From Albidovulum sediminis (GTDB lineage Bacteria > Pseudomonadota > Alphaproteobacteria > Rhodobacterales > Rhodobacteraceae), in contig NZ_JAOCQF010000001.1 in assembly GCF_025380365.1 (NCBI RefSeq), positions 1,414,245 to 1,478,244 of the forward strand: a stretch of 64,000 nt of DNA, read 5' to 3'. Position 1 is the first letter of the stretch; each line of letters starts with the position of its first letter. Both the position numbers and the translations under genes were made by a program. This document shows positions 10,835 through 25,883 of the stretch, piece by piece. The notes beneath the pieces were generated by a model. That model did not search any database, was not told where the DNA came from, and saw nothing but the letters and a program-made list of their open reading frames with translations.

Positions 10835-12052
10835 TTATTCGAAGGCGCTGGCGGGGTAGAACTTCACGTTCTCCCACTTGCCGTCCTTGGCCTGCTGGAT
10901 CGAATAGGACCCGGCGGGCGTGCCGCTTGCGTCGAAGGCAAGCGGGCCCGAGGCGCCCTCGTAGTTCACGTCCTTGCCGGCGGCGATCGCCTCCTTGCCG
11001 GCGGCAAAGCTGCTGACGGCCTCGCCCCCGTCGGCGATGTCACGGATGACCGCGTTGATCCCCTCGCCGGTGCAGGCATCGGCCTTTTCCAGCGACAGCG
11101 CGATCAGGTTCGCCATGTCGAAGGAGTTCGCCGCGAACGGCCCCGGCTCCGCCCCGTTCTTTTCCTGATAGAGCGCGTCGAAGGCCTTGTATTCGGGCAA
11201 CGAGCTGTCGGCGTCGGCAAATTCCACGAAGGCGCGGTCGTTCAGGTACTGCGCGCCCACGGCATCGAATATCTCGGGCACGGCGAGGTCGGCGGTGAAG
11301 AGCCACTCACCCTCGAACCCGCCCGCGGTCGCCTCCTTGATCACGGTCACGCCGGATTCCTGGCCACCGGCCAGGTAGATCGCATCCGGCGCATTGGCGA
11401 GGACGGAGACAAGCTCGGCCTGGTAGGACGGCTGGCCGGGGTTGTAGATGACGTAGTCGGTCAGTTCGATCCCCGAGGCGGCAAGCTTGTCCTTGGCGAC
11501 CTGCGCGGGCGAGATCGTCGATTCCTCGTTCTGAACCAGCATCGCCACGCGCTTGTAGCCCTTTTCGCTGAGCCACAGACCCGAGGCCGCGCCGTCGCCG
11601 AGGTCGGAGGAAACCGTGCGATAGACATAGTCGCCGCCCAGTTCGTTCAGCGTGATCGTCCCCGCGTAGGGCGACATGATCACGGTCTTGGTGCGCTTGG
11701 CCAGATCGACAAGCGCCACCATCACGCCCGAGGTCGGGCCGACGACGGCGACGGCGCCTTCGCTCTCGATCATCTTGGTGGCCTCGCGGATGCCCACCTC
11801 GGGGTTGCCGCCGGTGTCGGCGACGACGGTGCGGATCATGCCGCACTTGGTGCCGCCCGCCGCGTTCACTTCGGCCACGCCCAGTTCGACGGCCCCGGCG
11901 ACGATCTTGCCGAACTCCCCAAGCTCACCCGTCAGCGGCACGAGCACGCCGATGGTGACCTCCTGCGCGGACGCGGCAAGGGTCGAGGCGGCGAAGGTTC
12001 CGGCGAGCAGCGTGGATTTGAGCAGCATGCTCCTTATGGTCTGCGTCTTCAT
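10835..12052 (-). CDS. ABC transporter substrate-binding protein, LivK family (second system)
   Basis: A 405-residue periplasmic binding protein with a signal peptide (MKTQTIRSMLLKSTLL, cleavage at ASA-QE near residue 30) and the Peripla_BP_6 opening VTIGVLVPLTGELGEFG. It is the last gene of the second Liv operon (livHMGF-livK order), unlike the first system where the binding protein comes first. The operon is read from the promoter at about 15451-15478, which carries the AGTATACT-like element shared with the molybdenum hydroxylase and PreA units. It probably captures the substrate of that pathway. The ligand is unknown. Confidence 0.87.
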   Translation of the reverse strand: MKTQTIRSMLLKSTLLAGTFAASTLAASAQEVTIGVLVPLTGELGEFGKIVAGAVELGVAEVNAAGGTKCGMIRTVVADTGGNPEVGIREATKMIESEGAVAVVGPTSGVMVALVDLAKRTKTVIMSPYAGTITLNELGGDYVYRTVSSDLGDGAASGLWLSEKGYKRVAMLVQNEESTISPAQVAKDKLAASGIELTDYVIYNPGQPSYQAELVSVLANAPDAIYLAGGQESGVTVIKEATAGGFEGEWLFTADLAVPEIFDAVGAQYLNDRAFVEFADADSSLPEYKAFDALYQEKNGAEPGPFAANSFDMANLIALSLEKADACTGEGINAVIRDIADGGEAVSSFAAGKEAIAAGKDVNYEGASGPLAFDASGTPAGSYSIQQAKDGKWENVKFYPASAFE

Positions 12053-12075
12053 TGTCTTGTTCCTCCCTTATGTCG

Positions 12076-12783
12076 TTACACGTGAACCTGAAGCAGGACT
12101 TCTTCCAGGCGGCCAGGTGCCAGCAGCGACCTGGCTTCGAGGATTTCGGAGGTGCGGCCGGCGTCGATCACATAGGCCGTCTCGGAAATGGCGAGGATCT
12201 TTTCGGGGTTCTGTTCCACCACCCAGACCACCCCCATGCCCTCCTCGGCCAGTTCGCGAACCCAGGAGACGATGCGGTCGACGAAGATCGGGGCAAGACC
12301 CGCGGTCGGTTCGTCGAGGATCAGGATGTCGGGGCCGGCCACCAGCGCCATGGCGATGGCCAGCGTCTGGCGTTCGCCGCCAGACAGGGTCGAGGCCGCC
12401 TGATCCGCGCGTTCGGCCAGGATCGGGAACCGGCGCAGCACCTCGGCCACCCGCTCCCCCGCCCCCTCGAAGGCGAGCGAGGAGGCGCGCAGGTTGTCCC
12501 TGACCGAGAGGGCGGAAAAGACGTTGTGATCCTGCGGCACGAAGCCGATGCCTTCCTTGCAGATCGAAAGCGCGCTGTGGCCGACGAGAGAGTTGCCGCG
12601 ATAGCGCATCTCCCCCTCCATCACCGGAAGGTGCCCGGCGATGGTCTTCATCAGCGTGGATTTTCCGGCGCCGTTCGGCCCCAGGACGGCGGTGATCTCG
12701 CGCGGCGGCGCGGTCAGGTCGATGCCGTGCAGGATCTGGACCTTGCCGTAGCCCGATTTCAGCCCCTTGACCTCAAGCTGCAT
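12076..12783 (-). CDS. livF: ABC transporter ATPase LivF (second system)
   Basis: A 235-residue LivF-type ATPase with Walker A GPNGAGKST, signature LSGGERQTLAIA and Walker B ILILDEPTAGLAP. It overlaps the livG gene by 11 bases at its start and is followed 23 bases later by the binding-protein gene. It pairs with LivG to power the second Liv transporter. Confidence 0.9.
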   Translation of the reverse strand: MQLEVKGLKSGYGKVQILHGIDLTAPPREITAVLGPNGAGKSTLMKTIAGHLPVMEGEMRYRGNSLVGHSALSICKEGIGFVPQDHNVFSALSVRDNLRASSLAFEGAGERVAEVLRRFPILAERADQAASTLSGGERQTLAIAMALVAGPDILILDEPTAGLAPIFVDRIVSWVRELAEEGMGVVWVVEQNPEKILAISETAYVIDAGRTSEILEARSLLAPGRLEEVLLQVHV

Positions 12784-13546
12784 GGTCCGCCCCCAGATAG
12801 GCAGTGATCACCTTTTCGTCGGCCTTGATCTCTGCCGGGGTGCCTTGCGACAGAAGCTGGCCGTTCTGCAGGACAACCACCCGGTCGGCGATGCGCAAGA
12901 GGAAGTGGAGGTTGTGCTCCACCACGATCAGCGTCCGCCCCTCGGCATGCAGATCGACGAGGATGTTCGACAGTTTTGACTGGAGGCTGGGGTCGACCCC
13001 GGCGGTGGGTTCGTCCAGAAGCAGGATCTTGGGGTCGCGCACCAGTTGCCGCGCCACCTCCAGCATCCGCAACTCGCCGCCCGAAAGGCTGCCCACATGG
13101 TCATTGATCCGTTCGGACAGGCCCACGCGCGCCAGCACCGCCGCGGCCTTGTCCCGCAGCGCGCCTTCGCTGTCCCGCCAGCGGCCGGAGAACGCCATGC
13201 CGACGCGTTCGCCTGCGCTGTCGGCGCCGACGATCACGTTGTCGAGCACGCTGAGCGAGGGGAAGGCGCGCGGGGTCTGGAAGGTGCGGCCCAGCCCCAG
13301 CGCGGCGATTTCGGACGCGCGCGCTTTCGCAAGGTCCACCCCGTCCAGAAGCACCTTGCCTTCGTCGGGCTTGAGGACGCCCGAGATCAGGTTGAAGGTC
13401 GTGGACTTGCCCGCCCCGTTCGGCCCGATCAGGCCGAGGAAAGTGCCTTCGGGGACCGTGAAGCTCAGCCCGTCGTCGCCGCCGACGGCCTTGAGCCCGC
13501 CGAAGCGCTTGATGACCCGGTCCACGACCAGCAGATCGCGTGTCAT
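12773..13546 (-). CDS. livG: ABC transporter ATPase LivG (second system)
   Basis: A 257-residue LivG-type ATPase. The start at 13546 (MTRDLLVVDRVIKRFGG) overlaps the livM stop by ATGA; the longer open frame is antisense to livM. Walker A GPNGAGKST, signature LSGGELRMLEVARQL and Walker B ILLLDEPTAGVDP are intact, in contrast to the irregular signature of the first system's LivG. Confidence 0.9.
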   Translation of the reverse strand: MTRDLLVVDRVIKRFGGLKAVGGDDGLSFTVPEGTFLGLIGPNGAGKSTTFNLISGVLKPDEGKVLLDGVDLAKARASEIAALGLGRTFQTPRAFPSLSVLDNVIVGADSAGERVGMAFSGRWRDSEGALRDKAAAVLARVGLSERINDHVGSLSGGELRMLEVARQLVRDPKILLLDEPTAGVDPSLQSKLSNILVDLHAEGRTLIVVEHNLHFLLRIADRVVVLQNGQLLSQGTPAEIKADEKVITAYLGADHAA

Positions 13547-14469: not shown

Positions 14470-15329
14470 GACCGCGCCTTCCCCGACAGCCCCTGCGGGC
14501 GGACAAGCAGGGCCAGGATCACCACGAGGAAGGCGATCAGCGGCCGGTAGCCCGCCGGTATCCAGTAGACCGACATGTCCATCGCGATGCCGACGATCAG
14601 CCCCGCGGCGATCACGCTGTAGAGCGAGCCGAGCCCGGCCAGGATCGCCACGGCAAGGATCTGCAGGATCTGGTTGAAGGCGATGTCGGTCGAGAGCGTC
14701 GCGATCAGCGCCAGCATCACCCCCGCCAGCCCCGCCAGCCCCGAGGCGATCAGCCAGGTCGCGCGCGAGGTCTGGCGCACGTCGATCCCGCGTGAGGCTG
14801 CAAGCTCGGGGTTCGACGACATCGCCCGGATCGCAAGCCCGGTCTTCGTCCGGTTCAGGAACAGCGCAAGCGAGATGCCGGTTGCCGCCGCAAGTGCCAC
14901 GACGACCATCTGGTAGTCGGTGATGCGCAGGCCGAAGGCCTTGTAGGAGGTCGCCAGCGGCATGTCGAGCGAGCGGATGCCGGTGCCGATGATGGCGTGC
15001 ATGACGCCGGCCATGACATAGGCCACCCCGACAGAGGTGATCAGCAGGACCGCCGGCCCGAGCCGGCGCATCGGGTCATAGACCACCCGCCCGATCGCCA
15101 GTCCCAGGAATGCCGTCGCCACCACCGCGACCGCGGCCGAGGGCAGGAAGGGCCAGCCCGCCACCGCGTTCAGCCCCCAGGTGATGAAGGCAGAGACGCC
15201 CAGCATTTCGGCATGCGCGATGTTGAGGAACCCCTCGACCTGGCGCGTCAGAGAGAATCCGATGGTGGCGAGGATCAGGAAACAGCCTGTCACCACTCCT
15301 GTCAGGGCGTACTGCGCCAGCAAGGTCAC
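14466..15329 (-). CDS. livH: ABC transporter permease LivH (second system)
   Basis: A 287-residue LivH-type permease and the first gene of the second Liv operon. Motifs VEGFLNIAHAEMLGVSAF and AGLGSLYSVIAAGLIVG are visible. It lies about 120 bases downstream of the promoter with the AGCATACT element (15451-15458). The leader also has a 7-bp hairpin at about 15352-15369. Confidence 0.89.
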   Translation of the reverse strand: MTLLAQYALTGVVTGCFLILATIGFSLTRQVEGFLNIAHAEMLGVSAFITWGLNAVAGWPFLPSAAVAVVATAFLGLAIGRVVYDPMRRLGPAVLLITSVGVAYVMAGVMHAIIGTGIRSLDMPLATSYKAFGLRITDYQMVVVALAAATGISLALFLNRTKTGLAIRAMSSNPELAASRGIDVRQTSRATWLIASGLAGLAGVMLALIATLSTDIAFNQILQILAVAILAGLGSLYSVIAAGLIVGIAMDMSVYWIPAGYRPLIAFLVVILALLVRPQGLSGKARS

Positions 15330-15529: not shown

Positions 15530-16057
15530 CTAGAGCGTGCCCATGGGCGCCCGGCTCGCCTCGTTGTTGGCATCGACCATCTTGTTGATCAGGCGGAAGA
15601 ATTCGTCGCGCTCCTCGTCGGTCAGGGGGGCGATCAGGCGTTCTTGCGCGCGCGCCATCCGGGGACGCACGCCCTTGATGAAGGCGCGCCCCGCCTCGGT
15701 GATCTTGACCAGTTTCGCGCGCCGGTCGAACTTCGAGGACTGGCGGGTGAGAAAGCCGCGCCGCTCCAGCCGCCGGATCACGTCGGCCCCGCTGGTGCGG
15801 TCGATTCCGACCGAGGTGGAGAGGGTGAGCTGATCCATCTCCTCGCCGCTTTGCAACACGGTCAGGATGGCGGACTGCACCGGCGTCACATCCTCGCTGC
15901 CGCATTCCTCGGCGAAAAGGCCCACATGGATCTGGTGCAGGCGCCGGATCAGGTAACCGGGACGGGTCCACAACTCGTCATAGGTGCGACTGCGGACCTT
16001 GCCGGGCCGCGGTTCCTTGCCTGGCGTCTGTGACGTTTTGTCCATGTCCACCGCCAT
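15530..16057 (-). CDS. MarR-family transcriptional regulator
   Basis: A 175-residue MarR-type winged-helix regulator: dimerisation helices at both ends and a central wHTH with LTLSTSVGIDRTSGADVIRR, then FDRRAKLVKITEAGR (the beta-wing with conserved D-R). Start chosen at ATG 16057 (AAGGA just upstream); ATG 16045 (MDKTSQ) is also possible. It is divergent from the molybdenum hydroxylase operon, and the AGTATACT element at 16178 lies between them. It is the only regulator gene in the 10.8-26 kb block and so is the likely controller of the four matching promoters. MarR proteins of this type usually release DNA on binding an aromatic ligand. Confidence 0.85.
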   Translation of the reverse strand: MAVDMDKTSQTPGKEPRPGKVRSRTYDELWTRPGYLIRRLHQIHVGLFAEECGSEDVTPVQSAILTVLQSGEEMDQLTLSTSVGIDRTSGADVIRRLERRGFLTRQSSKFDRRAKLVKITEAGRAFIKGVRPRMARAQERLIAPLTDEERDEFFRLINKMVDANNEASRAPMGTL

Positions 16058-16157
16058 TTCCTTGCGATCCGGGACCGGCCTGCGAGTCCCGCATTTCCGG
16101 TCCTGTCTTATCACCGCTCGGCCCCCGTCAAACAAGCCTTCACGCGCGCCAAGGGTG

Positions 16158-16185: not shown

Positions 16186-16272
16186 TCCTTTGTGGTCCAC
16201 CCTTTTCGGACCCTCCGGTTTCTGCATGAATGCGCCGGTCGGGCCGGCAGGTTGCGGCGAAGGAAGGTGAAC

Positions 16273-18618
16273 GTGTCTACGGGTATCGGCGAACGCGTCC
16301 AGCGCAAGGAAGACCGCAGGCTTCTGAACGGGCAGGCCCGCTTCGTCGGCGACATCCGCCTGCCCCGCCAGTGGGAGGCGGCCTTTGTCCGCAGCCCCGT
16401 CGCGCACGGGCGCATCCGCGCGGTCCGCAAGCCCGCAGGGGCCGAGGCGCGCGTCTTCACTGCCGCCGATCTGGCTGATGTCCGGCCGATCCGCGCGCAA
16501 TCCTCGCTGCCGAGCTACAACGCTTCCGACCAGTATCCGCTGGCCAAGGACAAGGTCCGCTTCGTCGGCGAATGCGTGGCGATCTGCATCGCCCCCACCC
16601 GCGCCGAGGCCGAGGACCTGGCGGAACGGGTCGAACTGGAAATCGACGCCCTGCCCGCGGTCGTTGACGCGCTGAAGGCACGCCAGCCCGATTCGGCGCT
16701 CCTGCACGAGGAGTGGGGCAGCAACCTGTTCCTGACCACCTTCTTCGACGGCGACATCGACAGCCTGCGCAAGACCGCCCCCGTCGTCATCGAGCGCGAA
16801 TATTCGACCGCGCGCCAGTGCATGAACCCGATGGAGGGCAAGGGAACGCTCGCCCACTGGGACGAGAAGGCAGGCCAGCTTGTCGTCTACACCTCGACCC
16901 AGGTGCCGCACCTGATCCGCACCGGCATTTCGGAATTCCTCGGCCTCGACCAGGGCCAGGTCCGGGTGATCGCGCCGGATGTGGGCGGCGGCTTCGGCTA
17001 CAAATGCGTGCTCCAGCCCGAGGAGTTGTCGGTGTCCTGGGTCGCGCGCCGGGCCGGCCGCCCGATCCGCTGGACCGAGGACCGGCGCGAACATCTGGTC
17101 GCCGGCGCCAACACCCGCCAGCACCACTACCGGCTCACCGCCTTCGCCGACACCCGCGGGCGGCTTCTGGGGATCGACGCGGAGATCACCGTCGATGTCG
17201 GCGCCTATTCGGTCTGGCCCTTCACCGCCTGCCTGGAGGCCGCGCAGGCGGGCGGCAACCTGCCCGGCCCCTACGACTTCGGCATCTACCGCTGTCGCAC
17301 ATATTCGGTCGCGACCAACAAGCCCGCCTTCACCCCCTATCGCGGCGTGGCCCGGCCCGGTGTCTGCTTTGCGATGGAATTGACGATCGACGCCATCGCC
17401 CGCGCGGTGGGGCGCGAGCCGTCCGAGGTGCGCAAGGAAAACCTCGTCCCGGCAGCGAAGATGCCCTACACCAACGTGACGAAGAAGTTCTACGACAGCG
17501 GCGACTACCCCGAAAGCGTGGCGCAGGCCGAAAAGGCCATCGACCTCAAGGGGTTCCGCGCGCGACAGGCGGCCGCCCGCGCGGAAGGCCGGTATCTTGG
17601 CATCGGCTTTTCGACCTTCACCGAACAATCCGCCCACGGAACCAAGGTCTTTGCCGCCTGGGGCCTGCCTTTGGTGCCCGGCTACGATCAGGCGATGGTG
17701 AAGATCACGCCGTCCGGCTCGGTCGAGGTGCGGTCGGGCAACCACAGCTTCGGCCAGGGGCTGGAGACGACGCTGGCCCAGGTGGCGAGCGAATGGCTGA
17801 GCGTCGACGTCAGCCGCATCGGCGTGGTGATGGGCGACACCGGCGTAACGCCCTATTCGACCGGCGCCTATGCCTCGCGCGGGATGGTCATGTCGGGGGG
17901 CGCGGTGTCGAAGGCGGCCGAGGTGCTGGCGGGCCGGGTCAGGCGCCACGCCGCGCACCTGCTGCAATGCCGGGCCGAGGACGTGCGCCTTGCCGAGGGC
18001 AAGGCCTGGCACGGCGCCGCGCATGTGACGTTCGAGGATATCGCGCGGGCCTGGTACCTGCGCCCCGACCAGTTGCCCGACGACGTGGAGACGGCGGGGC
18101 TTGAGGTGACGGAGGGCTACAAGCCCGACATCGACACTGGCGTCTTCACCTATGCGACCCATGCCGCCGTGGTCGAGGTCGACCCCGACACCGGCCGTGT
18201 CGCGATCGAGGATTATTTCATCTTCGAGGATTGCGGGCGGCGGGTGAACCCGCTGATCCTCGAAGGGCAGGCCTATGGCGGCGCGGCGCAGGGCATCGGC
18301 ACCGCGCTTTTCGAGGAGGTGCTTTACGATGCGAACGGCCAGCCGCTGACCTCCACCCTTGCCGACTACATCCTGCCGGGGCCGGCGGAACTGCCGGCGT
18401 TCCGCCTTGGCCATGCCGAAACGCTGTCACCCTACACGCGGCACGGGATCAAGGGCGTCGGCGAAGGCGCGGCCATCGCGCCGGGCGGGGCCATCGTCAA
18501 CGCGGTTAACGATGCGCTTTCCCCCTTCGGCGTCGAGTTGAACAGCCTGCCCGCCACTCCCGAGCGGGTGCTGGGCGCGATCCTGAAGGCGCAGGCCGCG
18601 CGGGAGGCTGCGGAATGA
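16273..18618 (+). CDS. Molybdenum hydroxylase large subunit (xanthine dehydrogenase/CoxL family)
   Basis: A 781-residue molybdopterin-binding subunit. It would hydroxylate an aromatic or heterocyclic carbon using water as oxygen source. Visible motifs: GERVQRKEDRRLLNGQARF at the N-terminus, VGGGFGYK, YRGVARPGVCFAMEL at the active-site loop, SFGQGLETTLAQVASEW, and KGVGEGAAIAPGG with the catalytic glutamate E731. The loop is not the AYRCSFR type of CO dehydrogenases. The GTG at 16273 has AAGGA 8 bases upstream and is preferred; the frame is open further upstream across the promoter. Its stop overlaps the FAD-subunit start. The substrate is unknown, but the operon context (PreA-like reductase, amidase) favours an N-heterocycle. 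Confidence 0.88.
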   Translation: MSTGIGERVQRKEDRRLLNGQARFVGDIRLPRQWEAAFVRSPVAHGRIRAVRKPAGAEARVFTAADLADVRPIRAQSSLPSYNASDQYPLAKDKVRFVGECVAICIAPTRAEAEDLAERVELEIDALPAVVDALKARQPDSALLHEEWGSNLFLTTFFDGDIDSLRKTAPVVIEREYSTARQCMNPMEGKGTLAHWDEKAGQLVVYTSTQVPHLIRTGISEFLGLDQGQVRVIAPDVGGGFGYKCVLQPEELSVSWVARRAGRPIRWTEDRREHLVAGANTRQHHYRLTAFADTRGRLLGIDAEITVDVGAYSVWPFTACLEAAQAGGNLPGPYDFGIYRCRTYSVATNKPAFTPYRGVARPGVCFAMELTIDAIARAVGREPSEVRKENLVPAAKMPYTNVTKKFYDSGDYPESVAQAEKAIDLKGFRARQAAARAEGRYLGIGFSTFTEQSAHGTKVFAAWGLPLVPGYDQAMVKITPSGSVEVRSGNHSFGQGLETTLAQVASEWLSVDVSRIGVVMGDTGVTPYSTGAYASRGMVMSGGAVSKAAEVLAGRVRRHAAHLLQCRAEDVRLAEGKAWHGAAHVTFEDIARAWYLRPDQLPDDVETAGLEVTEGYKPDIDTGVFTYATHAAVVEVDPDTGRVAIEDYFIFEDCGRRVNPLILEGQAYGGAAQGIGTALFEEVLYDANGQPLTSTLADYILPGPAELPAFRLGHAETLSPYTRHGIKGVGEGAAIAPGGAIVNAVNDALSPFGVELNSLPATPERVLGAILKAQAAREAAE

Positions 18619-19448
18619 AGCCTGCCGCCTTCGAGATGGTCCGCCCCGCCGATGCGCCCGAGGCCGGTCGCGCGCTGGCGGCGGGCGACGGCGCCGTGAA
18701 GGTCATGGCGGGGGGTCAGTCGCTGGGCCCGATGCTGAACCTGCGCCTTGCCCGGCCCGAACGCCTTCTGGACATCACCGCGCTGCCGGGCCTTTCCGAC
18801 TGCCGCGAGACGGCGAGCCATGTGGAGATCGGCGCCGCCGTCACCCACGCAAGGATCGAGGACGGCGACTGCCCGGAACCCATCGCCGGCATGCTGCGCC
18901 ATGTCGCGGGCGGCATCGCCTACCGCGCGGTGCGCAACCGCGGCACCATCGGCGGCAGCCTCTGCCACGCCGACCCGGCGGCAGACTGGGTGACGGCGCT
19001 GACCGCGCTCGGCGCCGGCGTCGTGGCGACGGACGGCACGGGGGCCACGCGCGAGATTCCGATGCCCGCCTTCATGCTCGGCGCCTATCGCACCGCGCTT
19101 CGGCCCGACGAGATCGTGACCGCGATCCGCATCCCGCGCCATTCGCCGGCCGCGCGCTGGGGCTACCACAAGATCTGCCGCAAGGTGGGCGAGTTCGCCG
19201 ACGCCATCGGTGCCTTCGTCGCCGACCCCGAGACGCGCATCTGCCGCGCGGTCTTCGGATCGACCGGGGGGGCGCCGCTCCTCCTGCCCGACCTCGCTGC
19301 CCATGCGGCACGGACTGGCTCTCCGGCCGGCCTAACCACAGTGAAGACGGCGCTGGAACACAGCGGGCTATCGCTCTCAGCGGTGAAGATCCACCAGCTT
19401 GCCGTCGCCCATCGCCGCGCGGTCGAGGAGGCCCTGGCCGATGTCTGA
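18615..19448 (+). CDS. Molybdenum hydroxylase FAD-binding subunit (CoxM type)
   Basis: A 277-residue medium subunit carrying FAD, which passes electrons out of the enzyme. Motifs AGGQSLGPMLNLRLA (about residues 34-48) and RNRGTIGGSLCHADPAADW (about 104-122) are the two FAD-contact loops of the family. It overlaps the large-subunit stop by ATGA and the iron-sulfur subunit start by 8 bases, so the three subunits are translationally coupled. Confidence 0.9.
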   Translation: MKPAAFEMVRPADAPEAGRALAAGDGAVKVMAGGQSLGPMLNLRLARPERLLDITALPGLSDCRETASHVEIGAAVTHARIEDGDCPEPIAGMLRHVAGGIAYRAVRNRGTIGGSLCHADPAADWVTALTALGAGVVATDGTGATREIPMPAFMLGAYRTALRPDEIVTAIRIPRHSPAARWGYHKICRKVGEFADAIGAFVADPETRICRAVFGSTGGAPLLLPDLAAHAARTGSPAGLTTVKTALEHSGLSLSAVKIHQLAVAHRRAVEEALADV

Positions 19449-20574
19449 TACGATCCGCCTGACCGTCAACGGCGAAGACTGCACCGCGACCGTTCCGCCC
19501 CGCGCGCAACTGGCCGAGGTGCTGCGCGACCACCTCGACCTGACCGGCACGCATCTGGCCTGCGAACAGGGCGTCTGCGGCGCCTGCACGGTGATGATGA
19601 ACGGCAAGCCTGTCAGGTCCTGCATCACCTATGCCCATGCCTGCGACGGCGCGGTGATCGAGACGATCGAGGGCCATCGCGGCGATCCGGTCATGGACCG
19701 CCTGCGCGACGCCTTTTCGCGCCACCACGCGCTGCAATGCGGCTTCTGCACGCCCGGCATGCTGGCGACCGCGCGCGACATCGTCGCCCGGTTCGACGAC
19801 CCCGACGAGGCGACGATCCGCCATGAACTCAGCGGCAACCTCTGCCGCTGCACGGGCTATGTCGGCATCGTCGCCGCGATCCGCGACGTGGCGGGCCAGC
19901 GCCGGACCGAGGGCGGCCGGGCCGAACGGCCCGCCCCGGCCATCCCGGCGCGGTCGCGCAGCTTCACCCGCTTTGACCCGCTGCCGCCCGAAGCCACCCC
20001 AGCGCCCGCCGCCGCAGCGGCGCGCGTGTCGGACGAGGGCGGCGCGACGGTGGTGCGCCGCGACTTCACCCTGAACCACCCGCCCGAAACCGTCTGGGCG
20101 CTGTTCCGCGACCCGCGCAGCGTCGCCCCCTGCATCCCCGGCGCCACGCTCGAGAGCGTGGATGGCGACCGCTTCCAGGGCTCGGTCGAAATCCGCTTCG
20201 GCCCGATCCGGGCGCGGTTCGGCGGGCACGGTACGTTCCGCAACGACGACACCACGCGCGAAGGCGCGATCAGCGGCCAGGGCGATGACAAGCTGGGCAA
20301 GTCGCGGGTGCGCGGCGATCTCGGCTATGCGATCGCGCCCGGCACCGATGCCGCCACCAGCCAGGTCCGGGTGGAGTTGCGCTTCGGGATCGAGGGGATG
20401 CTGGCGCAGTTCAACCGGCCCGAGCTTGTCGCGGGCTTCGTCGACTACATCCTGGCCCAGTTCGCCGCCAACTGCGACGCGGTTCTGGCCGGCGGCGCGG
20501 CCGCGCCCGCCCGCCGGCTCAGCGTCTTCGCGATGCTCTGGGCGGTGCTGAAGGCGCGGCTGAAGGGCCGCTAA
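19441..20574 (+). CDS. Mo-hydroxylase [2Fe-2S] subunit fused to a CoxG-like (SRPBCC) domain
   Basis: A 377-residue two-domain protein. Residues 1-155 are a standard small subunit with plant-type [2Fe-2S] ligands C41, C46, C49 and C61 and the second cluster's C100, C103, C135 and C137 (QCGFCTPG, LCRCTGY). After a Pro/Ala-rich linker (about 160-205), the rest is a CoxG/SRPBCC fold (FTLNHPPETVWALFRDP, CIPGA, GDDKLGKSRVRG). CoxG is normally a separate membrane-associated protein that recruits CO dehydrogenase to the membrane. The small subunit alone would be about 160 residues. The basic tail LSVFAMLWAVLKARLKGR could contact membrane. Confidence 0.88.
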   Translation: MSDTIRLTVNGEDCTATVPPRAQLAEVLRDHLDLTGTHLACEQGVCGACTVMMNGKPVRSCITYAHACDGAVIETIEGHRGDPVMDRLRDAFSRHHALQCGFCTPGMLATARDIVARFDDPDEATIRHELSGNLCRCTGYVGIVAAIRDVAGQRRTEGGRAERPAPAIPARSRSFTRFDPLPPEATPAPAAAAARVSDEGGATVVRRDFTLNHPPETVWALFRDPRSVAPCIPGATLESVDGDRFQGSVEIRFGPIRARFGGHGTFRNDDTTREGAISGQGDDKLGKSRVRGDLGYAIAPGTDAATSQVRVELRFGIEGMLAQFNRPELVAGFVDYILAQFAANCDAVLAGGAAAPARRLSVFAMLWAVLKARLKGR

Positions 20575-20582: not shown

Positions 20583-21392
20583 CTAGTCCACGAAGGCGCG
20601 TTCGACGACATATTCGCCGGGGCGGCTGTTCGCGCCCTCGGTGAAGCCACGCGCCTCCAGGAGGCGCTTCATGTCGAGGTTGAGGCCCATCGAGCCGCAG
20701 ATCATCACGCGGTCCTGGCCGGGGTCGAGCGGCGGCAGGCCGAGATCTTCAAAGAGTTTCCCGCTTTCGATCAGGTCGGTGATCCGGCCCATGCGTTCGG
20801 ACGGCTCGCGCGTCGTGGTCGCATAGCGGCGGAACTTCGCGGCCGCCTCCTCGCCCACCAGCGGGTCCTCCAAAAGCCGCCGGTGCAGGTCGGCGCCATA
20901 GGCAAGCTCGCTGACATTGCGGCAGGTCTGGGTCAGGATCACGGTCTGGAACTTCTCATAGGTCTCGGGCTCGCGCATCAGGCTGGCGAAGGGGGCGACG
21001 CCGGTGCCGGTCGAGATCATCCAGAGCGTCCGGCCCGGCAGCAGCGCGTCGAGGACCAGCGTGCCGGTGGCCTTCGTCCTGACGATCACCTGATCGCCCG
21101 GACGGATCTTCTGCAACCGCGAGGTCAGGGGGCCGTCCGGCACCTTGATCGAATAGAACTCCAGCTCCTCGTCCCAGAAGGGCGAGGCGATGGAATAGGC
21201 CCTAAGGACCGGCTTGCCACCCTCGCCCGGCAGGCCGATCATCACGAACTCGCCTGACCGGAAGCGGAAGCTTTGCGGCCGCGTCACGCGGAAGGAAAAC
21301 AGCCGGTCGTCCCAGTGGCGGACGCTGAGGACGGTCTGGCCGTCGGGCAAGACGGCGGGGGTCGCGGCGTAGGGGTCTTGCACGGCGTTCAT
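20583..21392 (-). CDS. fpr: Ferredoxin-NADP+ reductase
   Basis: A 269-residue FAD protein of the bacterial Fpr type. The FAD motif RAYSIASPFW, the NADP motif GTGVAPFASLMR and a C-terminal segment ending YVVERAFVD are present. It moves electrons from NADPH to ferredoxin. It follows the 7Fe ferredoxin gene by 46 bases on the minus strand, so the pair forms a ready electron-supply unit under the promoter at 21982-22010. The nearest consumer is the ferredoxin-like-domain-bearing PreA homologue encoded upstream. Confidence 0.88.
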   Translation of the reverse strand: MNAVQDPYAATPAVLPDGQTVLSVRHWDDRLFSFRVTRPQSFRFRSGEFVMIGLPGEGGKPVLRAYSIASPFWDEELEFYSIKVPDGPLTSRLQKIRPGDQVIVRTKATGTLVLDALLPGRTLWMISTGTGVAPFASLMREPETYEKFQTVILTQTCRNVSELAYGADLHRRLLEDPLVGEEAAAKFRRYATTTREPSERMGRITDLIESGKLFEDLGLPPLDPGQDRVMICGSMGLNLDMKRLLEARGFTEGANSRPGEYVVERAFVD

Positions 21393-21438: not shown

Positions 21439-21960
21439 TCAGGGGGTCACGCGCAGGCCGTCCACCTCGAAGCCGTCGTCGTCGGGCGCGCGGGGGGGCA
21501 GTTCCACGACCGCGCTGCCGGCATCGGCCTCGGGGAAGGCCACCCGCGTGCCGTCAAGCTCGTAGCCCTCAAGCACGTCCCCGGGCGCCTCCGCGCCGGC
21601 CGGATAGACCGGCTTTTGCGCATGCGGGGCTTCCGGCGCTTCGCCCGTAATCAGCAGCGCCGCCTTGCCGGGGCGTCCGTTCCAGTCCTCGGCATCGGCG
21701 GGCACGGTGCCGATCTCGGTGATGACGGGCCAGCGCGCCGCGTATTTCGCGTTGATCGCCAGCCAAGTCTCAAGTCCCGGCTCGGTATCTGCCCGGATCG
21801 CATCGGCCGGGCATTCCGGTTCGCACACGCCGCAGTCGATGCATTCGTCGGGGTGGATGACCAGAAAGTTCTCCCCCTCGTAGAAGCAGTCCACCGGGCA
21901 GACGGTGACGCAGTCCTGAAACTTGCAGTTGATGCAGTTCTCGGTGACGACATAGGTCAT
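21439..21960 (-). CDS. fdxA: 7Fe ferredoxin with long C-terminal extension
   Basis: A 173-residue ferredoxin. Residues 1-107 match the FdxA/Azotobacter FdI type: C9-x2-C12-x4-C17-x3-C21 and C40-x2-C43-x2-C46-x3-C50, giving one [3Fe-4S] and one [4Fe-4S] cluster. Usual length is about 106-112 residues; here about 60 acidic, Pro/Ala-rich residues are added (from [12 protein letters not shown] to the end). The start codon is 21 bases from the -10 element of its promoter. It probably carries electrons from the reductase encoded downstream to the PreA-like enzyme. Confidence 0.87.
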
Positions 21961-21981
21961 GATTCACCTCCCGTTTTAGGA

Positions 21982-22010
21982 AGTATACTTCTTATTTGTC
22001 GCCCGCGCAA
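21982..22010 (-). promoter_or_regulatory. Promoter of ferredoxin/reductase unit with AGTATACT element
   Basis: Minus strand: -35 TTGCGC (22005-22010), 17-base spacer, -10 TATACT (21982-21987). The core extends to a perfect 12-bp palindrome GAAGTATACTTC (21980-21991) followed by CTAAA. A consensus-like GGGAGGTG ribosome binding site follows just before the ferredoxin ATG. Confidence 0.7.
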
Positions 22011-22031: not shown

Positions 22032-22730
22032 TCAGCCGACGACGGGAACCGGGACCACGTCATAGGCATGCGCGATGGTGCGGTTCAGGACCGGGTCCAA
22101 CAGCTCGAAGCGAAAGCGCGGGCTCGGGCGCACGCCGCCGATGGCGCCGCAGGTGCCGCCGAACATCAGCACGCCCTCCTCCAGGGCGCCGCCCTCTTCG
22201 GCCAGCTTCGCCAGCAACTCACGCGGCGAGATCAGGCCAGCGACGCCGCCATCCTGATAGACGACCTCTGCCCCGTTCTCCTTGATGTGGGAGCGGATGC
22301 GCAGCTTGTCCCAATGCCCCTCGACCTCGTCGAGCGGCCAGAACTCGGTCGCCACGGGCTTGTCGCACAGCTGCTTGGCGACCGAGATTCCCATGTGTTC
22401 AACCACCCGGTCGGTGTGGTCCGATCCGGCGCCGACCCAGATCCGGCCCTTGTGGTTCAGAAGCACATATTCGACCTCGCCGCTCGACCCCTCGCCCAGC
22501 GCCTCGATGGTGTCGGCGGTCGACAGGCGCGACACGCCGACGCGGTAGAAAAGCGGCGTCTTCGAAGGCGGCTGCACGCCGATCTTGGCAAGTTCGTCGA
22601 TGTGGTGCTGAAGCGCGGCCCGGTCGCGCCCGGTCCAGCCGCCGACGATCACCTTGCGGACGGTGACGCGGTCCCGCTCGGCCCCCTCGCGGGTGGTGAA
22701 CAGCGCATCGAAAACGACTTGGGCGGGCAT
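22032..22730 (-). CDS. DUF2848 family protein
   Basis: A 232-residue protein that I place in DUF2848 by overall pattern: HTDRVVEHMGISVAKQLCDKP in the middle (quoted in part: HTDRVVEHMGISVAKQ) and VLMFGGTCGAIGGVRP near the C-terminus. The fold may relate to fumarylacetoacetate hydrolase. No experimental function is known to me. It is the last gene of the preA-cupin-amidase operon, 15 bases after the amidase. A hydrolytic step on the amidase product or substrate is a reasonable guess only. Confidence 0.75.
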   Translation of the reverse strand: MPAQVVFDALFTTREGAERDRVTVRKVIVGGWTGRDRAALQHHIDELAKIGVQPPSKTPLFYRVGVSRLSTADTIEALGEGSSGEVEYVLLNHKGRIWVGAGSDHTDRVVEHMGISVAKQLCDKPVATEFWPLDEVEGHWDKLRIRSHIKENGAEVVYQDGGVAGLISPRELLAKLAEEGGALEEGVLMFGGTCGAIGGVRPSPRFRFELLDPVLNRTIAHAYDVVPVPVVG

Positions 22731-22745
22731 GGATGGTCCTTTCGG

Positions 22746-24092
22746 TCAGTGGCCGCGGATGGTGCCTTCAATCCCGCGCGCGATGGACAGGAGCCGCCGG
22801 TCCTCGCCCGTCCGGCCCATCAGCATCGCGCCAACGGGAAGGGTGCCATCGTCGTGGCAGGGGATGGAGATGGCGGGAAGGTCGAGGAAGTTGCCGACCG
22901 CCGTGTTGCGCAGGCAAAGCAGGTTGGTGGCGTTGGACACGGCGGTGTCCTTCAGGCTGTCCAGCGTCGGCGGCACGATCTGCACGGCGGGCAGGATCAG
23001 CGCGTCGAAGGGCAGCGTCCGCTCGGCCACCAGCGCCCGCATCCGCGCGCGCTCCTCGATCACGCGGATGTAGTCCTCGGCCGTCTGCGAGCGTCCGGCG
23101 CCGAAGCGGTCGCGCACCCAGGGGTCGTAGAATTCGGCCCGCGTGGCCAGGTGCGGGGCGTGCCAGGCGTGGGCCTCCGCCCCGACCAGCCCGCCCTTGG
23201 CGTTGATCCGCGGCAGGTCGGCGAGTTCGGCAATGGTCAGCGGCGTCAGCCGCACGCCGCGTCGCGAAAGCCGCGTCAGCATCGCCTCGAACGCGGCGCC
23301 CACCATGGCGTCCATGTGCTCTGTCACATAGCCGCCAAGGACGCCCAGCCGGAGCCCGCCTTCGGGGAACGACGGCTCATCCTCCCCCTCCCCGCCCGCA
23401 AGGACGGAATCGAGCACCGCGCAGCACGAAACGCTGGTCGCCAGCGGCCCGATGCAGTCAAGCGTCTTCGACAGGGGCACGGCGCCTTCGCGCGGGACGC
23501 GGGTCGAGGTCGGCTTGAAGCCGACGATGCCGCAGAAGGCGGCCGGGATCCGGCAGGAGCCGCCGGTGTCGGTGCCGATGGCGGCGGGCACCATCCCCGC
23601 CGCGACCGACACGCCGGCACCCGAGGACGATCCGCCCGGTATCCGCGCCTCGGCCGGGTCGCAGGGATTGAGCGGCGTGCCGAAATGGGCGTTCAGGCCA
23701 AGGCCGGAATAGGCGAACTCGGTCATGTTGTTCTTGCCGACGATGACGAAGCCGGCCCGGCGCAGGTTCCACACGATCGCGGCATCGGCCGCGGCAGGCG
23801 CCTGCGTGTCGAGCACCCGCGACCCCGCCCGCGTCACCTCGCCCTTCACGTCGAAGAGGTCCTTGATCGCGATCGGCACGCCGGCGTGGCGCGGCAGCGG
23901 CAGGCCCTTCGCCCGCGCGCCGTCGATCCACTCGGCCTGCGCCATCGCCGCACCGGCACAGGTGGACAGGAACGCAAGCCCGCCCTGCCCCGCGGGATCG
24001 GCGATGCGTTCCAGCGCCTCGGCCACGAGGGCGGCGCTTGTCACGGCGCCCTTGTCGAGCTTGCGGGCAAGGTCGGTGATGTTCTGGATCAT
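22746..24092 (-). CDS. Amidase signature family hydrolase
   Basis: A 448-residue amidase-signature enzyme. The Ser-cisSer-Lys triad is visible: Lys in PIAIKDLFDVKG, and the two serines in IPGGSSSGAGVSVAAG and GTDTGGSCRIPAAFCG. Start set at ATG 24092 (MIQNITDLARKL); the frame is open further to 24134. It is third in the operon with preA, cupin and DUF2848. It would cleave a carboxamide, possibly the ring or side-chain amide created after ring reduction. Substrate not identified. Confidence 0.86.
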   Translation of the reverse strand: MIQNITDLARKLDKGAVTSAALVAEALERIADPAGQGGLAFLSTCAGAAMAQAEWIDGARAKGLPLPRHAGVPIAIKDLFDVKGEVTRAGSRVLDTQAPAAADAAIVWNLRRAGFVIVGKNNMTEFAYSGLGLNAHFGTPLNPCDPAEARIPGGSSSGAGVSVAAGMVPAAIGTDTGGSCRIPAAFCGIVGFKPTSTRVPREGAVPLSKTLDCIGPLATSVSCCAVLDSVLAGGEGEDEPSFPEGGLRLGVLGGYVTEHMDAMVGAAFEAMLTRLSRRGVRLTPLTIAELADLPRINAKGGLVGAEAHAWHAPHLATRAEFYDPWVRDRFGAGRSQTAEDYIRVIEERARMRALVAERTLPFDALILPAVQIVPPTLDSLKDTAVSNATNLLCLRNTAVGNFLDLPAISIPCHDDGTLPVGAMLMGRTGEDRRLLSIARGIEGTIRGH

Positions 24093-24154: not shown

Positions 24155-24532
24155 TTACTGCGGGTCGTAGTAGTGCTGTTCCATCAGCAGGCAGCCTTCT
24201 TCGCTGCGGAAGGGGCCGTGGGGCACATGCGGCGGACGCACGCAGTAGGTGTATTGCCCGAACCGCTCGCCCCCCGTCGGGCCGTCGTTGCCGACCCAGA
24301 GATCGCCCTCGATCACGAAGACCTCTTCCCAGTAGTCATGCTCGAACGGGACGGTGGTATAGGTGCCCGGCTCGAACTTCAGAAGCCGCGTGTGCCCGCC
24401 CTGGCGGTTGGCCATGTCGAGCGTGCCCGACAGGATCTTCTGCTTGATCCCGGCAGGGTATCCCTTCGGTGTCTCCCAGCCGCTGTCGATGTCGACCTGG
24501 TAGAATTCGCGATGGATCTTGTTGACGGCCAT
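24155..24532 (-). CDS. Cupin-domain protein
   Basis: A 125-residue single-domain cupin. The barrel motifs TVPFEHDYWEEVFVIEGDLWVG and PPHVPHGPF give possible metal ligands (H, E, H). The start at 24532 (MAVNKIHREFYQ) follows the preA stop by 10 bases. Small cupins in catabolic operons are often isomerases, lyases or dioxygenases, or regulators of enzyme state. Its role here is unknown. Confidence 0.8.
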   Translation of the reverse strand: MAVNKIHREFYQVDIDSGWETPKGYPAGIKQKILSGTLDMANRQGGHTRLLKFEPGTYTTVPFEHDYWEEVFVIEGDLWVGNDGPTGGERFGQYTYCVRPPHVPHGPFRSEEGCLLMEQHYYDPQ

Positions 24533-24542
24533 GGATGCCTCC

Positions 24543-25883
24543 CTATTCGGCTGGTTCCTTGTTGAATTTCGGACTGTTGGCGCGGATCGTGTCCATGTTG
24601 TTGCGCTGCGTTCCGAACTTGTCGTGCTCGAACACGCCCTCGGGGATGTTGAAGAACCCCGAGGCAAGCTGGGCGGGCGTGGACTCCCGCATCTCGATGG
24701 AATCGAAGGGGCAGACGTCGAGGCAAAGCTCGCAGCCGATGCAGCTGTCTGTGTGCACGTCGATCTTGCCCGCCGGGTTCTGTGACAGTGCCTCGTAGAA
24801 GCAGACCTGGATGCAGATGTTGCAGGTCGGGTTCTTGCAGGTGTCCTCGTTGACGACCGCGTGCATCCGGTTCTTGGAGAACTGTTCGGAATAGTCCTTG
24901 ACCGAGCGCTGCGAGGCGAGGCCGATCATCTCCTCCACCGTCTCGTAGCCCTTTTCGTCCATGAACTGCTCGACCCCCTCGATGATCTTGGGCAGCCACT
25001 TGATGCCCTTGACCATGAGGATCGAGCCGACCTGCACGATGGTCGCCCCCGCCATCAGGAACTCGATCACGTCCCGGTGGTCGAAGATGCCGTTCGAGCC
25101 CGAGATCGGCATGCCGAGGTCTTCGTGGATGCGGTGCACCCAGCGCAGCGACAGGGGCTTGACCCAGGTGCCGCCGATCCCGGCCGGGCCGCCGATGCGC
25201 GGCTGGCCCGTCTCTATGTCGACGACAAAGCCGGTGTGGCGGTTGATCGCGGTCACGCCCGCCGCCCCTGCCTCGCGCACCGCCTTGGCCACGGCGAGCG
25301 GCTTCGACTGGTCCGGCGTCAGCTTGACGATGACCGGGATGCCGACGGATTCGCAGACCTGGCGCGTGACCTCGTAGGCCACCTCCGGCTCCTGCCCGAT
25401 CATCGAGCCACCGTGGACGCCGGGCATCATCGCCGGGTGCGGGCAGCCGAAGTTCAGTTCGACCATCGGCAGGCCGCAATCCTCGATCGTGCGGCAGATG
25501 TCCTTCCAGCCGTTGATGTCCTTGGCGCCGGCGCTGCCGATCAGATGGGCGCCACGGTCGGCTGCGTATTTCTGGGTTTCCTTCAGATCGGGGATCCAGT
25601 CCTTGTAGTAGGTGCTGGAATAGCCCGACCGGCTGTAGAAGACGAAATCGCGCGCGGGCTTGCCGCGGATGATCTCGCCCTTGGCGTTCATCACGCAGTA
25701 CTTCGAGTTTTGCGTCAGCCGCGCCATGTCCTCGATATCGGTCAGCGTCTTGATGATCGCCCCCGACGCGCCCGCGTCGAAGCATTGGCGCATCAGGTCG
25801 GGGCTGTTCGTCGTTTCGAGCGACGCGATGATGACGGGGTTTTTGAACTTCACTCCGCAGAAGTCGACGCTCATGTCGGCCAT
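24543..25883 (-). CDS. PreA-like dihydropyrimidine dehydrogenase subunit (FMN, 2x[4Fe-4S])
   Basis: A 446-residue protein: FMN-binding DHOD-type barrel (about residues 1-310) and a C-terminal ferredoxin-like domain with CKNPTCNICIQVC and CIGCELCLDVCP, ligands for two [4Fe-4S] clusters. The catalytic loop reads NFGCPHP (N144-C147). The acid cysteine is kept, but the serine that precedes it in dihydropyrimidine dehydrogenases (NLSCPH) is Gly146. No PreT-like FAD/NADPH subunit gene is in the window, so the nearby ferredoxin and its reductase are the likely donors. It is first in the operon preA-cupin-amidase-DUF2848. The reaction is probably reduction of a ring double bond in an N-heterocycle; whether that is a pyrimidine is open. 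Confidence 0.85.
   Translation of the reverse strand: MADMSVDFCGVKFKNPVIIASLETTNSPDLMRQCFDAGASGAIIKTLTDIEDMARLTQNSKYCVMNAKGEIIRGKPARDFVFYSRSGYSSTYYKDWIPDLKETQKYAADRGAHLIGSAGAKDINGWKDICRTIEDCGLPMVELNFGCPHPAMMPGVHGGSMIGQEPEVAYEVTRQVCESVGIPVIVKLTPDQSKPLAVAKAVREAGAAGVTAINRHTGFVVDIETGQPRIGGPAGIGGTWVKPLSLRWVHRIHEDLGMPISGSNGIFDHRDVIEFLMAGATIVQVGSILMVKGIKWLPKIIEGVEQFMDEKGYETVEEMIGLASQRSVKDYSEQFSKNRMHAVVNEDTCKNPTCNICIQVCFYEALSQNPAGKIDVHTDSCIGCELCLDVCPFDSIEMRESTPAQLASGFFNIPEGVFEHDKFGTQRNNMDTIRANSPKFNKEPAE

What the first reader, a model, noticed from the sequence alone, without database searches (positions are those of the whole stretch)
10835..25883. Candidate undescribed N-heterocycle pathway: Mo hydroxylase plus ferredoxin-dependent PreA-like reductase, amidase, DUF2848 and cupin
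The co-regulated block encodes a complete logic: import (Liv system), hydroxylation of a ring carbon (Mo hydroxylase), NADPH to ferredoxin electron supply (Fpr, 7Fe ferredoxin), ring reduction (PreA-like FMN/Fe-S protein) and hydrolysis (amidase, DUF2848). Hydroxylation, then ferredoxin-type reduction, then amide opening resembles the strategy of reductive nicotinate degradation via 6-hydroxynicotinate, but the enzymes differ. Pyrimidine catabolism would need a dihydropyrimidinase, which is absent. I know no characterised pathway with this exact set.
Basis: inference. Interest (0 to 1): 0.85.

Follow-up and report, generated by a model that had tools for sequence, protein, structure and literature searches.

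The report
Reductive picolinate breakdown gene cluster
This stretch looks like a bacterial gene set that imports the pyridine compound picolinate, hydroxylates it with a molybdenum enzyme as known degraders do, but then reduces and hydrolyses the ring instead of splitting it with oxygen, a second half that I could not find described.

Summary
In detail: Liv importer, MarR regulator, Mo hydroxylase, FdxA ferredoxin, Fpr, DUF2848 protein, amidase, cupin and a PreA-like reductase lie at 10835-25883; 12 of 23 related loci keep the order of the PreA operon. Two results sharpen it. (1) A palindrome, GRAGYATACT, sits before each transcription unit and nowhere else in the window (5 matches at 4 places, 0.03 expected); its core is in 28 of 35 promoter regions of the window and 14 relatives. 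(2) The same Liv-MarR-Mo-hydroxylase module (Mo large subunit 75% identical) lies in Paracoccus seriniphilus beside genes whose content and order fit the oxidative picolinate (pic) pathway. In a Mo-subunit tree the two cluster types interleave. Best reading: picolinate -> 6-hydroxypicolinate -> ferredoxin-dependent ring reduction -> lactam opening, probably to 2-oxoadipate. Betaproteobacterial loci have caprolactamase-like HyuAB instead of amidase/DUF2848/cupin. The genome gave no PicD match and only weak partial matches to two other oxidative pic enzymes. Substrate: supported by comparison. Chemistry after 6-hydroxypicolinate: inferred. New variant of a known kind; no experiment was run.

The parts
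10835..12052 (-). LivK-type substrate-binding protein, probable picolinate binding
   Evidence: Peripla_BP_6; 71% to the one in the P. seriniphilus locus L110
12076..12783 (-). LivF ATPase
   Evidence: ABC_tran; 66% in L110
12773..13537 (-). LivG ATPase
   Evidence: ABC_tran, BCA_ABC_TP_C; 68% in L110
13543..14469 (-). LivM permease
   Evidence: BPD_transp_2; 74% in L110
14466..15329 (-). LivH permease
   Evidence: BPD_transp_2; 76% in L110
15449..15460 (.). operator before liv (GAAGTATGCTCC)
15530..16135 (-). MarR-family regulator, PicR-like (true start probably further inside)
   Evidence: MarR, HTH_27; 65% in L110
16178..16187 (.). operator in the divergent marR/Mo-hydroxylase promoter
16270..18618 (+). 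Mo hydroxylase large subunit, picolinate dehydrogenase-like
   Evidence: MoCoBD_1/2, Ald_Xan_dh_C; 75% to L110, 60% to L113
18615..19448 (+). Mo hydroxylase FAD subunit
   Evidence: FAD_binding_5
19441..20574 (+). Mo hydroxylase 2Fe-2S subunit fused to CoxG
   Evidence: Fer2, Fer2_2, COXG
20583..21392 (-). Fpr-type NADPH:ferredoxin reductase
   Evidence: FAD_binding_6, NAD_binding_1; best NCBIfam PRK10926 ferredoxin--NADP(+) reductase, below cut-off
21439..21960 (-). FdxA ferredoxin
   Evidence: NF045490 over cut-off
21980..21991 (.). operator before fdxA
   Evidence: core kept in 9 of 12 relatives
22032..22730 (-). DUF2848 protein, possibly FAH-like fold
   Evidence: PF11010; AF2 and Foldseek, weak
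22746..24092 (-). amidase-signature amidase
   Evidence: PF01425, PRK07056; Lys and Ser-Ser motifs read (motif recalled)
24155..24532 (-). cupin
   Evidence: Cupin_7; AF2 pLDDT 85.8, nearest TM1459 and KdgF
24543..25883 (-). PreA-like FMN/4Fe-4S reductase, proposed ferredoxin-dependent 6-hydroxypicolinate reductase
25942..25951 (.). operator before the preA operon
7893..10485 (+). modABC molybdate importer, neighbour only
   Evidence: ModA and ModC over a cut-off, ModB read by eye; not found beside the block in L098 or L089

Best explanation
The block is a picolinate (pyridine-2-carboxylate) catabolic regulon with a reductive lower half. The Liv ABC system imports picolinate. The Mo hydroxylase puts oxygen from water on C6, giving 6-hydroxypicolinate, which is the lactam 6-oxo-1,6-dihydropyridine-2-carboxylate. 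Fpr and FdxA carry electrons from NADPH to the PreA-like FMN/4Fe-4S protein, which reduces the C4=C5 double bond next to the lactam carbonyl, as dihydropyrimidine dehydrogenase does with uracil. The resulting cyclic enamide is hydrated and opened, with cupin and DUF2848 as tautomerase/ring-opening enzymes, to 2-oxoadipamate; the amidase releases ammonia and 2-oxoadipate, which enters the glutaryl-CoA route. Beta-type versions use a caprolactamase-like HyuAB pair for the opening. The MarR protein, a PicR relative, controls the units through GRAGTATACTYC sites. Shown by sequence comparison: gene content, conserved order, shared operators, kinship of the upper module with clusters that look like oxidative pic clusters. 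Inferred: substrate, order of steps, each reaction after 6-hydroxypicolinate, and that MarR is the protein that binds the operator.
For: P. seriniphilus plasmid locus L110: Liv 66-76%, MarR 65%, Mo large subunit 75%, together with Rieske oxygenase subunits, an amidohydrolase like PicC, maleate isomerase, alpha/beta hydrolase, M29 'leucyl aminopeptidase' and isochorismatase. Burkholderia arboris L113 holds homologues in the order C-G-E-D-F, as published for B. bronchiseptica, where picG lies between picC and picE, the set is called picGEDF, and PicC is annotated amidohydrolase (PMC10142695, passages). 7 of 7 plasmid records with the PicC-like protein at 59% or more (H190-H196, the query's own record included) carry the Mo large subunit within 6 kb (positions); the other 80 of the 87 records matched, of lower identity, were not checked. 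Trees interleave the two cluster types: L110 with the alpha reductive rows (100/100), L113 with L021/L088 (99/98). Operator: 5 matches at 4 places in the window, all in the block, 0.03 expected; 28 of 35 promoter regions against means of 0.38 for shuffles and 1.31 for random pieces; in L110 4 matches, all in gaps before liv, picC-like and picG-like genes. PreA-like: NFGCPH kept, canonical NNIELI region replaced by FYSRSGYSS. FdxA and Fpr in the operon and no FAD/NAD domain in the reductase; ferredoxin-dependent PydAc is a precedent (PMC7332683, abstract and passages). HyuA best matches caprolactamase CapA. G000: no PicD match, weak partial matches to the Rieske and PicC-like proteins.
Against: No growth, expression or enzyme data. 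The pic label of L110 and L113 rests on annotation, gene content and published order, not on comparison with the A. faecalis or B. bronchiseptica sequences; NCBIfam named none of these enzymes as Pic proteins. Mo large subunits at 58% identity also sit in clusters with other partners (Azospirillum L111, Methylobacterium L112), so that enzyme alone does not fix the substrate. Foldseek hits for DUF2848 are not significant (best E 9.4e-3) and its model is modest (pLDDT 67.7). No 2-oxoadipate gene is conserved next to the block. The operator core is missing from 7 of 35 promoter regions, from the beta-type promoters searched and from the marR/Mo promoter of L110; in L110 the count alone is weak (4 of 100 shuffles reach it). 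The clade tests were named after the first tree had been seen. The empty PicD answer has no positive control in G000.
Confidence: 0.62

Rival explanations
1. Same enzyme logic, but the substrate is another pyridine-2-carboxylate such as dipicolinate or N-methylpicolinate (homarine), with the Mo hydroxylase, importer and regulator retuned.
For: Carriers include Ruegeria and Sulfitobacter records, groups with many marine members (recalled); 75% identity leaves room for a shift.
Against: Importer, regulator and hydroxylase all match one locus together with a picolinate-type lower pathway. N-methylpicolinate would need a demethylation step, and none of the block's family matches is a demethylase.
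Confidence: 0.14
2. The substrate is a five-membered ring, pyrrole-2-carboxylate: C5 hydroxylation, reduction to 5-oxoproline, opening to glutamate.
For: Cupin, amidase and DUF2848 recur with an HpaB-type monooxygenase and flavin reductase; pyrrole-2-carboxylate monooxygenase is listed in that group of two-component enzymes (PMC6165268, passages). HyuAB-type enzymes include 5-oxoprolinases (recalled).
Against: The Mo module sits in loci whose other genes fit dihydroxypyridine breakdown. Identity of the HpaB clusters with the pyrrole pathway was not tested.
Confidence: 0.06
3. A reductive nicotinate-type or isonicotinate pathway, as the first reader leaned to.
For: Same order of chemistry as 6-hydroxynicotinate reduction (PMC3511419, passages).
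Against: The aerobic reductive nicotinate clusters are described as carrying a homologue of E. barkeri 6-hydroxynicotinate reductase (same passages); here the reductase is of the PreA family and the upper module matches pic-like loci. The Hnr sequence itself was not compared.
Confidence: 0.04
4. The PreA operon and the Mo hydroxylase serve two separate pathways that merely share a regulator.
For: In L024 PreA-HyuAB lies apart from the best Mo match, which is on another contig; L022's genome gave no Mo large subunit match at 1e-60.
Against: 17 of 23 loci hold both; in L018 the genes lie in one direction MarR-PreA-HyuA-HyuB-MoL-MoM-MoS; the operators are shared.
Confidence: 0.08

Closest known systems
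Oxidative picolinate pathway (pic cluster, Alcaligenes faecalis JQ135, Bordetella bronchiseptica RB50; PMC10142695, passages)
   Same: A picolinate dehydrogenase (PicA1A2A3) to 6-hydroxypicolinate and a MarR-family PicR; the window's Mo hydroxylase, MarR and importer have their counterparts in the pic-like locus L110 (in L113 the Mo hydroxylase and MarR)
   Different: No PicB, PicC, PicD, PicE, PicF or PicG match in the window; PreA-like reductase, ferredoxin, Fpr, cupin, amidase and DUF2848 instead
Reductive nicotinate pathway (Eubacterium barkeri, Azorhizobium caulinodans; PMC3511419, passages)
   Same: Hydroxylation next to ring N, reduction of one double bond, hydrolysis
   Different: Other carboxylate position in the proposed substrate, reductase of the PreA family; sequence comparison with Hnr not made
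Dihydropyrimidine dehydrogenase PreA/PydA and ferredoxin-dependent PydAc (PMC7332683, abstract and passages)
   Same: FMN barrel with a C-terminal 4Fe-4S pair, catalytic-loop Cys kept, no FAD/NAD domain as in PydAc
   Different: About 34% to canonical PreA; substrate-contacting region replaced; PydAc has two Fdx domains, this protein one; G000 has a separate canonical PreA
Caprolactamase CapAB / hydantoinase-oxoprolinase family
   Same: Best NCBIfam match of one HyuA (L017) and one HyuB (L023) of the beta-type clusters
   Different: Below the family cut-offs (496 and 196 against 1000 bits); absent from the window block
HpaB-type monooxygenase clusters with cupin, amidase and DUF2848 (Thioclava, Roseateles, Caballeronia, Arthrobacter)
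   Same: Shared cupin family and DUF2848; Thioclava, Roseateles and Caballeronia also have amidase, Liv and MarR
   Different: HpaB and flavin reductase instead of Mo hydroxylase, PreA, FdxA, Fpr; Arthrobacter has a nitrilase-family amidase and MFS

Membership tests
pic picolinate cluster, upper module (PicA, PicR, importer) | three-subunit Mo hydroxylase close to those of pic loci | tested here: met
   against pic-like loci L110 (75%) and L113 (60%); interleaved in tree. Not compared with A. faecalis PicA itself
pic picolinate cluster, upper module (PicA, PicR, importer) | MarR-family regulator with sites before the units | tested here: inconclusive
   MarR present and a palindrome before each unit; binding by MarR not testable, and the published PicR site was not available
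pic picolinate cluster, upper module (PicA, PicR, importer) | enzyme oxidises picolinate at C6 | not testable with these tools
   needs an assay
pic picolinate cluster, oxidative lower pathway | PicB, PicC, PicD, PicE, PicF, PicG | tested here: not met
   no match of the L110 proteins in the window at 1e-6; PicD absent from G000, Rieske and PicC-like only weak partial matches; PicE, PicF, PicG not searched genome-wide
Dihydropyrimidine dehydrogenase (PreA) | score over the NCBIfam PreA cut-off | tested here: not met
   247 against 335 bits
Dihydropyrimidine dehydrogenase (PreA) | uracil-contacting residues Asn and Glu of the NIE region (role recalled) | tested here: not met
   region replaced by FYSRSGYSS; NFGCPH and KLTP kept
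Ferredoxin-dependent reductase of the PydAc kind | no FAD/NAD domain, ferredoxin as donor | tested here: inconclusive
   no FAD/NAD domain found in the protein; FdxA and Fpr in the operon; donor needs an assay
Fumarylacetoacetate hydrolase (FAH) fold, DUF2848 | FAH fold | tested here: inconclusive
   top 9 Foldseek hits are FAH-type proteins (partly by recall), best E 9.4e-3, none at 0.001; pLDDT 67.7
Reductive nicotinate cluster | E. barkeri-type 6-hydroxynicotinate reductase | not tested
   sequence not on hand; no hit of that name among the 25 of 73 rows shown for the PreA-like protein

The most novel reading that the evidence does not exclude
A previously undescribed reductive branch of aerobic picolinate degradation, swapped against the oxidative PicB-G half behind the same PicA/PicR front end, with a new dihydropyrimidine-dehydrogenase-family enzyme that reduces 6-hydroxypicolinate from ferredoxin, and a cupin/DUF2848/amidase lactam-opening module (or an ATP-dependent lactamase) giving 2-oxoadipate. 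It would give a first function to DUF2848 (no paper of the searched library names it).
Probability: 0.5. Interest if true: 0.8.

Novelty: new variant of a known kind. Interest (0 to 1): 0.7.

Why it matters
Picolinate is produced by animals and microbes and feeds bacteria (PMC10142695, abstract); the gene set described there opens its ring by oxygenation. A reductive lower half would save oxygen steps, would explain where these Rhodobacterales and beta-type bacteria send the ring carbon, and would give testable functions to DUF2848, a cupin family and a PreA subfamily that annotation would call pyrimidine reductase. It is also a clean case of one upper pathway joined to exchangeable lower pathways.

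Tried and rejected
Literature searches on isonicotinate, DUF2848, homarine, nicotinate and Mo hydroxylases, pyrrole-2-carboxylate and picolinate listed no paper that I recognised as describing this gene set; the iad auxin paper (PMC12633357, passages) did not match. Neighbours of preA in L008, L009, L011 and L013 (E1-like protein, acyl-CoA dehydrogenase, MdcH/FabD-like protein; not each in all four) and of fpr in L011-L013 (ETF, 3-hydroxybutyryl-CoA dehydrogenase) suggested a 2-oxoadipate/glutaryl-CoA route, but they vary between loci, the two acyl-CoA dehydrogenases scanned score 219-237 against 470 for glutaryl-CoA dehydrogenase, and one protein is FabD-like: not used. modABC adjacency is not conserved in the two relatives checked. 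The four genome-wide operator matches outside the block fall inside called ORFs, one of them among ribosomal protein genes by eye, and gave no lead; the reversed pattern as control had 3 matches in the genome. The PDB sequence search with DUF2848 found nothing usable (one match, E 0.43). A phylum sample of 398 genomes found the close PreA-like protein only in G000.

Rows left out: of 22 Mo subunits prepared, L081 was dropped for in-frame stops (21); the second tree (18 rows) also omits L067, L087 and L089. L087, L088 and L089 were labelled reductive because their genomes carry the PreA-like gene on another contig. The palindrome was found on 9 loci and then counted on 15; of 8 promoter regions in loci not used to find it (L005, L011-L014, L089) 6 carry it.


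Full report
What is there. The block 10835-25883 holds three transcription units (units inferred from strand and spacing): liv genes and marR on the minus strand (10835-16135), the Mo hydroxylase on the plus strand (about 16270-20574), and preA-cupin-amidase-DUF2848-fdxA-fpr on the minus strand (25883-20583). Family searches confirm every part. The Mo large subunit reads AFTPYRGVARPG at the active-site loop, so it is not a form I CO dehydrogenase (motif recalled), and all 13 NCBIfam models that match it stay below their cut-offs. The genome is about 4.29 Mb in 20 contigs; the other carrier among 292 Rhodobacterales genomes is G099, same genus, whose contig length equals that of the D. denitrificans record L003, so the window is probably from Defluviimonas or close kin.

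Conservation. The PreA-like protein brought 23 loci from a collection with one genome for each of 84,980 species; that scan needs exact conserved peptides and misses distant kin. In 12 (L002-L013, mostly Rhodobacteraceae by title; L013's record is titled Blastopirellula MAG) the order PreA-cupin-amidase-DUF2848-FdxA-Fpr is kept. L015 (Rhodospirillales MAG) has PreA-cupin-amidase-DUF2848-TPP enzyme-FdxA with MarR and the Mo hydroxylase. In 8 of 8 beta-type or uncultured loci (L016-L023) PreA is followed by HyuA (in L019 and L022 only a part fits on the contig), and HyuB was found in 5 of these 8. L024 has HyuA and HyuB before PreA. L014 is a 3.3-kb contig with PreA alone. The Mo large subunit lies in the fetched stretch in 17 of 23. 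Of the 6 others (L011, L014, L019, L022, L023, L024) a search of their genomes at 1e-60 found it, at 56-79%, in 5, not in L022's. Among the 292 Rhodobacterales genomes only G000 and G099 carry the close protein; the other listed matches are at 30-39%, of the canonical PreA kind, and G000 has one of these on contig C13 at 34%. The block is rare.

Operator. Comparing the promoters of the three units in the window and 8 relatives gave a shared palindrome. GRAGYATACT occurs 5 times in the window, at 15451, 16178, 21980/21982 and 25942, against 0.03 expected. The core AGYATRCT is in 28 of 35 promoter regions of 15 loci (window included); in 300 rounds shuffled regions give 0.38 on average (largest 2), random pieces of the same loci 1.31 (largest 5). 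A further site before fdxA is kept in 9 of 12 relatives. In the whole genome GRAGYATRCT has 11 matches at 9 places, 5 of them in the block; the reversed pattern has 3 matches. It was not found in the beta-type promoters searched.

The substrate. The best plasmid match to the Mo large subunit is Paracoccus seriniphilus at 75%, and the same record gives the best MarR match at 65%. Its locus L110 carries Liv (66-76%), MarR and the Mo hydroxylase in the window's order, then Rieske oxygenase subunits, an amidohydrolase, a TRAP importer, maleate isomerase, alpha/beta hydrolase, an M29 'leucyl aminopeptidase' (M29 recalled; the annotation says leucyl aminopeptidase) and an isochorismatase-family protein. 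Burkholderia arboris L113 has homologues, the last five enzymes in the order amidohydrolase, maleate isomerase, alpha/beta hydrolase, M29, isochorismatase. PMC10142695 (abstract and passages) describes the pic pathway: PicA makes 6-hydroxypicolinate, PicB 3,6-dihydroxypicolinate, PicC (annotated amidohydrolase) decarboxylates it, then 2,5-dihydroxypyridine goes through PicD, PicE, PicF, PicG; in B. bronchiseptica picG lies between picC and picE, and the set is written picGEDF. L113 and L110 fit this. Its reference list names PicR as a MarR-family repressor of pic (title only; paper not held). NCBIfam named none of these proteins as Pic enzymes, so the pic label rests on annotation, order and the paper. 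In L110 the palindrome core occurs 4 times, all in gaps before liv (twice), before the PicC-like gene and before the picG-like gene, but not in the marR/Mo promoter; the count alone could be chance (4 of 100 shuffles reach it), the places are what counts. L113 has two cores, one 44 bases before the PicC-like gene. 7 of 7 plasmid records with a PicC-like protein at 59% or more, the query's own included, hold the Mo large subunit within 6 kb; the 80 other records matched were not checked.

Tree. With 21 and then 18 Mo large subunits, the oxidative L110 groups with the alpha reductive rows (100/100) and the oxidative L113 with the beta-type reductive L021 and L088 (100/99, then 99/98). Holding all reductive rows, or both oxidative rows, together is rejected (p-AU 2.5e-105 and 1.6e-48), with the caution that these groups were named after the first tree. 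The tree needs at least two changes of lower half, with only two oxidative rows in it. Two clusters with other partners (L111, L112) also fall inside this family, which limits what the hydroxylase alone tells.

The lower half. G000 shows no PicD match, and only partial 25-30% matches to the Rieske and PicC-like proteins (the empty answer has no positive control in G000). L110's plasmid record holds no PreA-like match at 1e-20 and L113's only one at 33%; their chromosomes were not searched. The PreA-like protein keeps NFGCPH and KLTP, but the region that reads NNIELI in G000's canonical PreA is replaced, with an insertion, by FYSRSGYSS, in which Tyr83, Ser84, Arg85, Ser86, Tyr88, Ser89 and Ser90 are invariant in 24 of 24 sequences, as is Arg215. 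Invariant arginines would suit a carboxylate; this is inference. Only a C-terminal 4Fe-4S pair is present and no FAD/NAD domain was found; FdxA and Fpr are in the operon, and PydAc shows that ferredoxin can serve such an enzyme (PMC7332683, abstract and passages), though PydAc has two Fdx domains. By analogy the C4=C5 bond is reduced.

Ring opening. One HyuA (L017) and one HyuB (L023) of the beta-type loci best match caprolactamase subunits, which points to a lactam. In 30 DUF2848 loci without this block (12 plasmid records and 18 of the better genome hits, chosen for contig length and score) a homologue of the window's amidase is found in 16, a DUF1445-type 'hydro-lyase' in 13, an HpaB-type monooxygenase in 8 (two of them at 35%), and in 8 of those 8 the same cupin family. 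In Arthrobacter, Rhodococcus and Priestia a nitrilase-family amidase stands next to DUF2848, and in Rhodococcus an Old Yellow Enzyme-type reductase (Oxidored_FMN) too. Sulfitobacter and Paracoccus loci with the same kind of importer exchange a HyuAB fusion for an amidase. DUF2848 therefore often goes with amide or lactam hydrolysis, several times next to a redox enzyme. Its model resembles FAH enzymes only weakly. The cupin model is good (pLDDT 85.8; three of the five models were poor) and closest to TM1459 and KdgF; KdgF opens cyclic unsaturated uronates (recalled), a fair analogue for hydrating a cyclic enamide. The division of labour between cupin, DUF2848 and amidase is a guess.

Verdict. 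Picolinate as substrate: about 0.75. Reduction of 6-hydroxypicolinate by the PreA-like enzyme: about 0.6. 2-Oxoadipate as product: about 0.45. I saw no paper in the searched open-licence library that describes this gene set (ten searches, listings only beyond the papers named), which does not exclude subscription papers.

Noticed in passing
window 7893-10485 (+): A modABC molybdate importer lies next to the Mo-hydroxylase block; it was not found beside the block in L098 or L089.
   Followed up: partly
window 1817-7378: A second Liv-type ABC system with its own binding protein (5254-6441) and a GntR/FCD regulator (6641-7378), next to a gene (1083-1808) with only a weak NCBIfam match (PRK07475).
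   Followed up: no
L058, L061, L062 and others: 'Putative hydro-lyase' - TRAP importer - DUF2848 clusters in which the hydrolase is either a HyuAB fusion or an amidase: a second, unexplained pathway.
   Followed up: partly
L091:5935-11388: Arthrobacter plasmid run MFS - nitrilase-family amidase - DUF2848 - HpaB-type monooxygenase - cupin - flavin reductase, a candidate for pyrrole-2-carboxylate breakdown.
   Followed up: partly
L111:13977-20565: Azospirillum Mo hydroxylase of the same family (58%) beside an amidase, HpxZ-like protein and MarR: probably another N-heterocycle.
   Followed up: no
L021, L013: Record titles (Bordetella parapertussis MAG, Blastopirellula MAG) fit the content poorly: the L021 preA gene is about 51% GC (Bordetella is GC-rich, recalled), and the L013 block matches the window at 55-87%.
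   Followed up: no
window 12024-12031: A palindrome core (AGCATGCT) near the start of livK, of unknown meaning.
   Followed up: no
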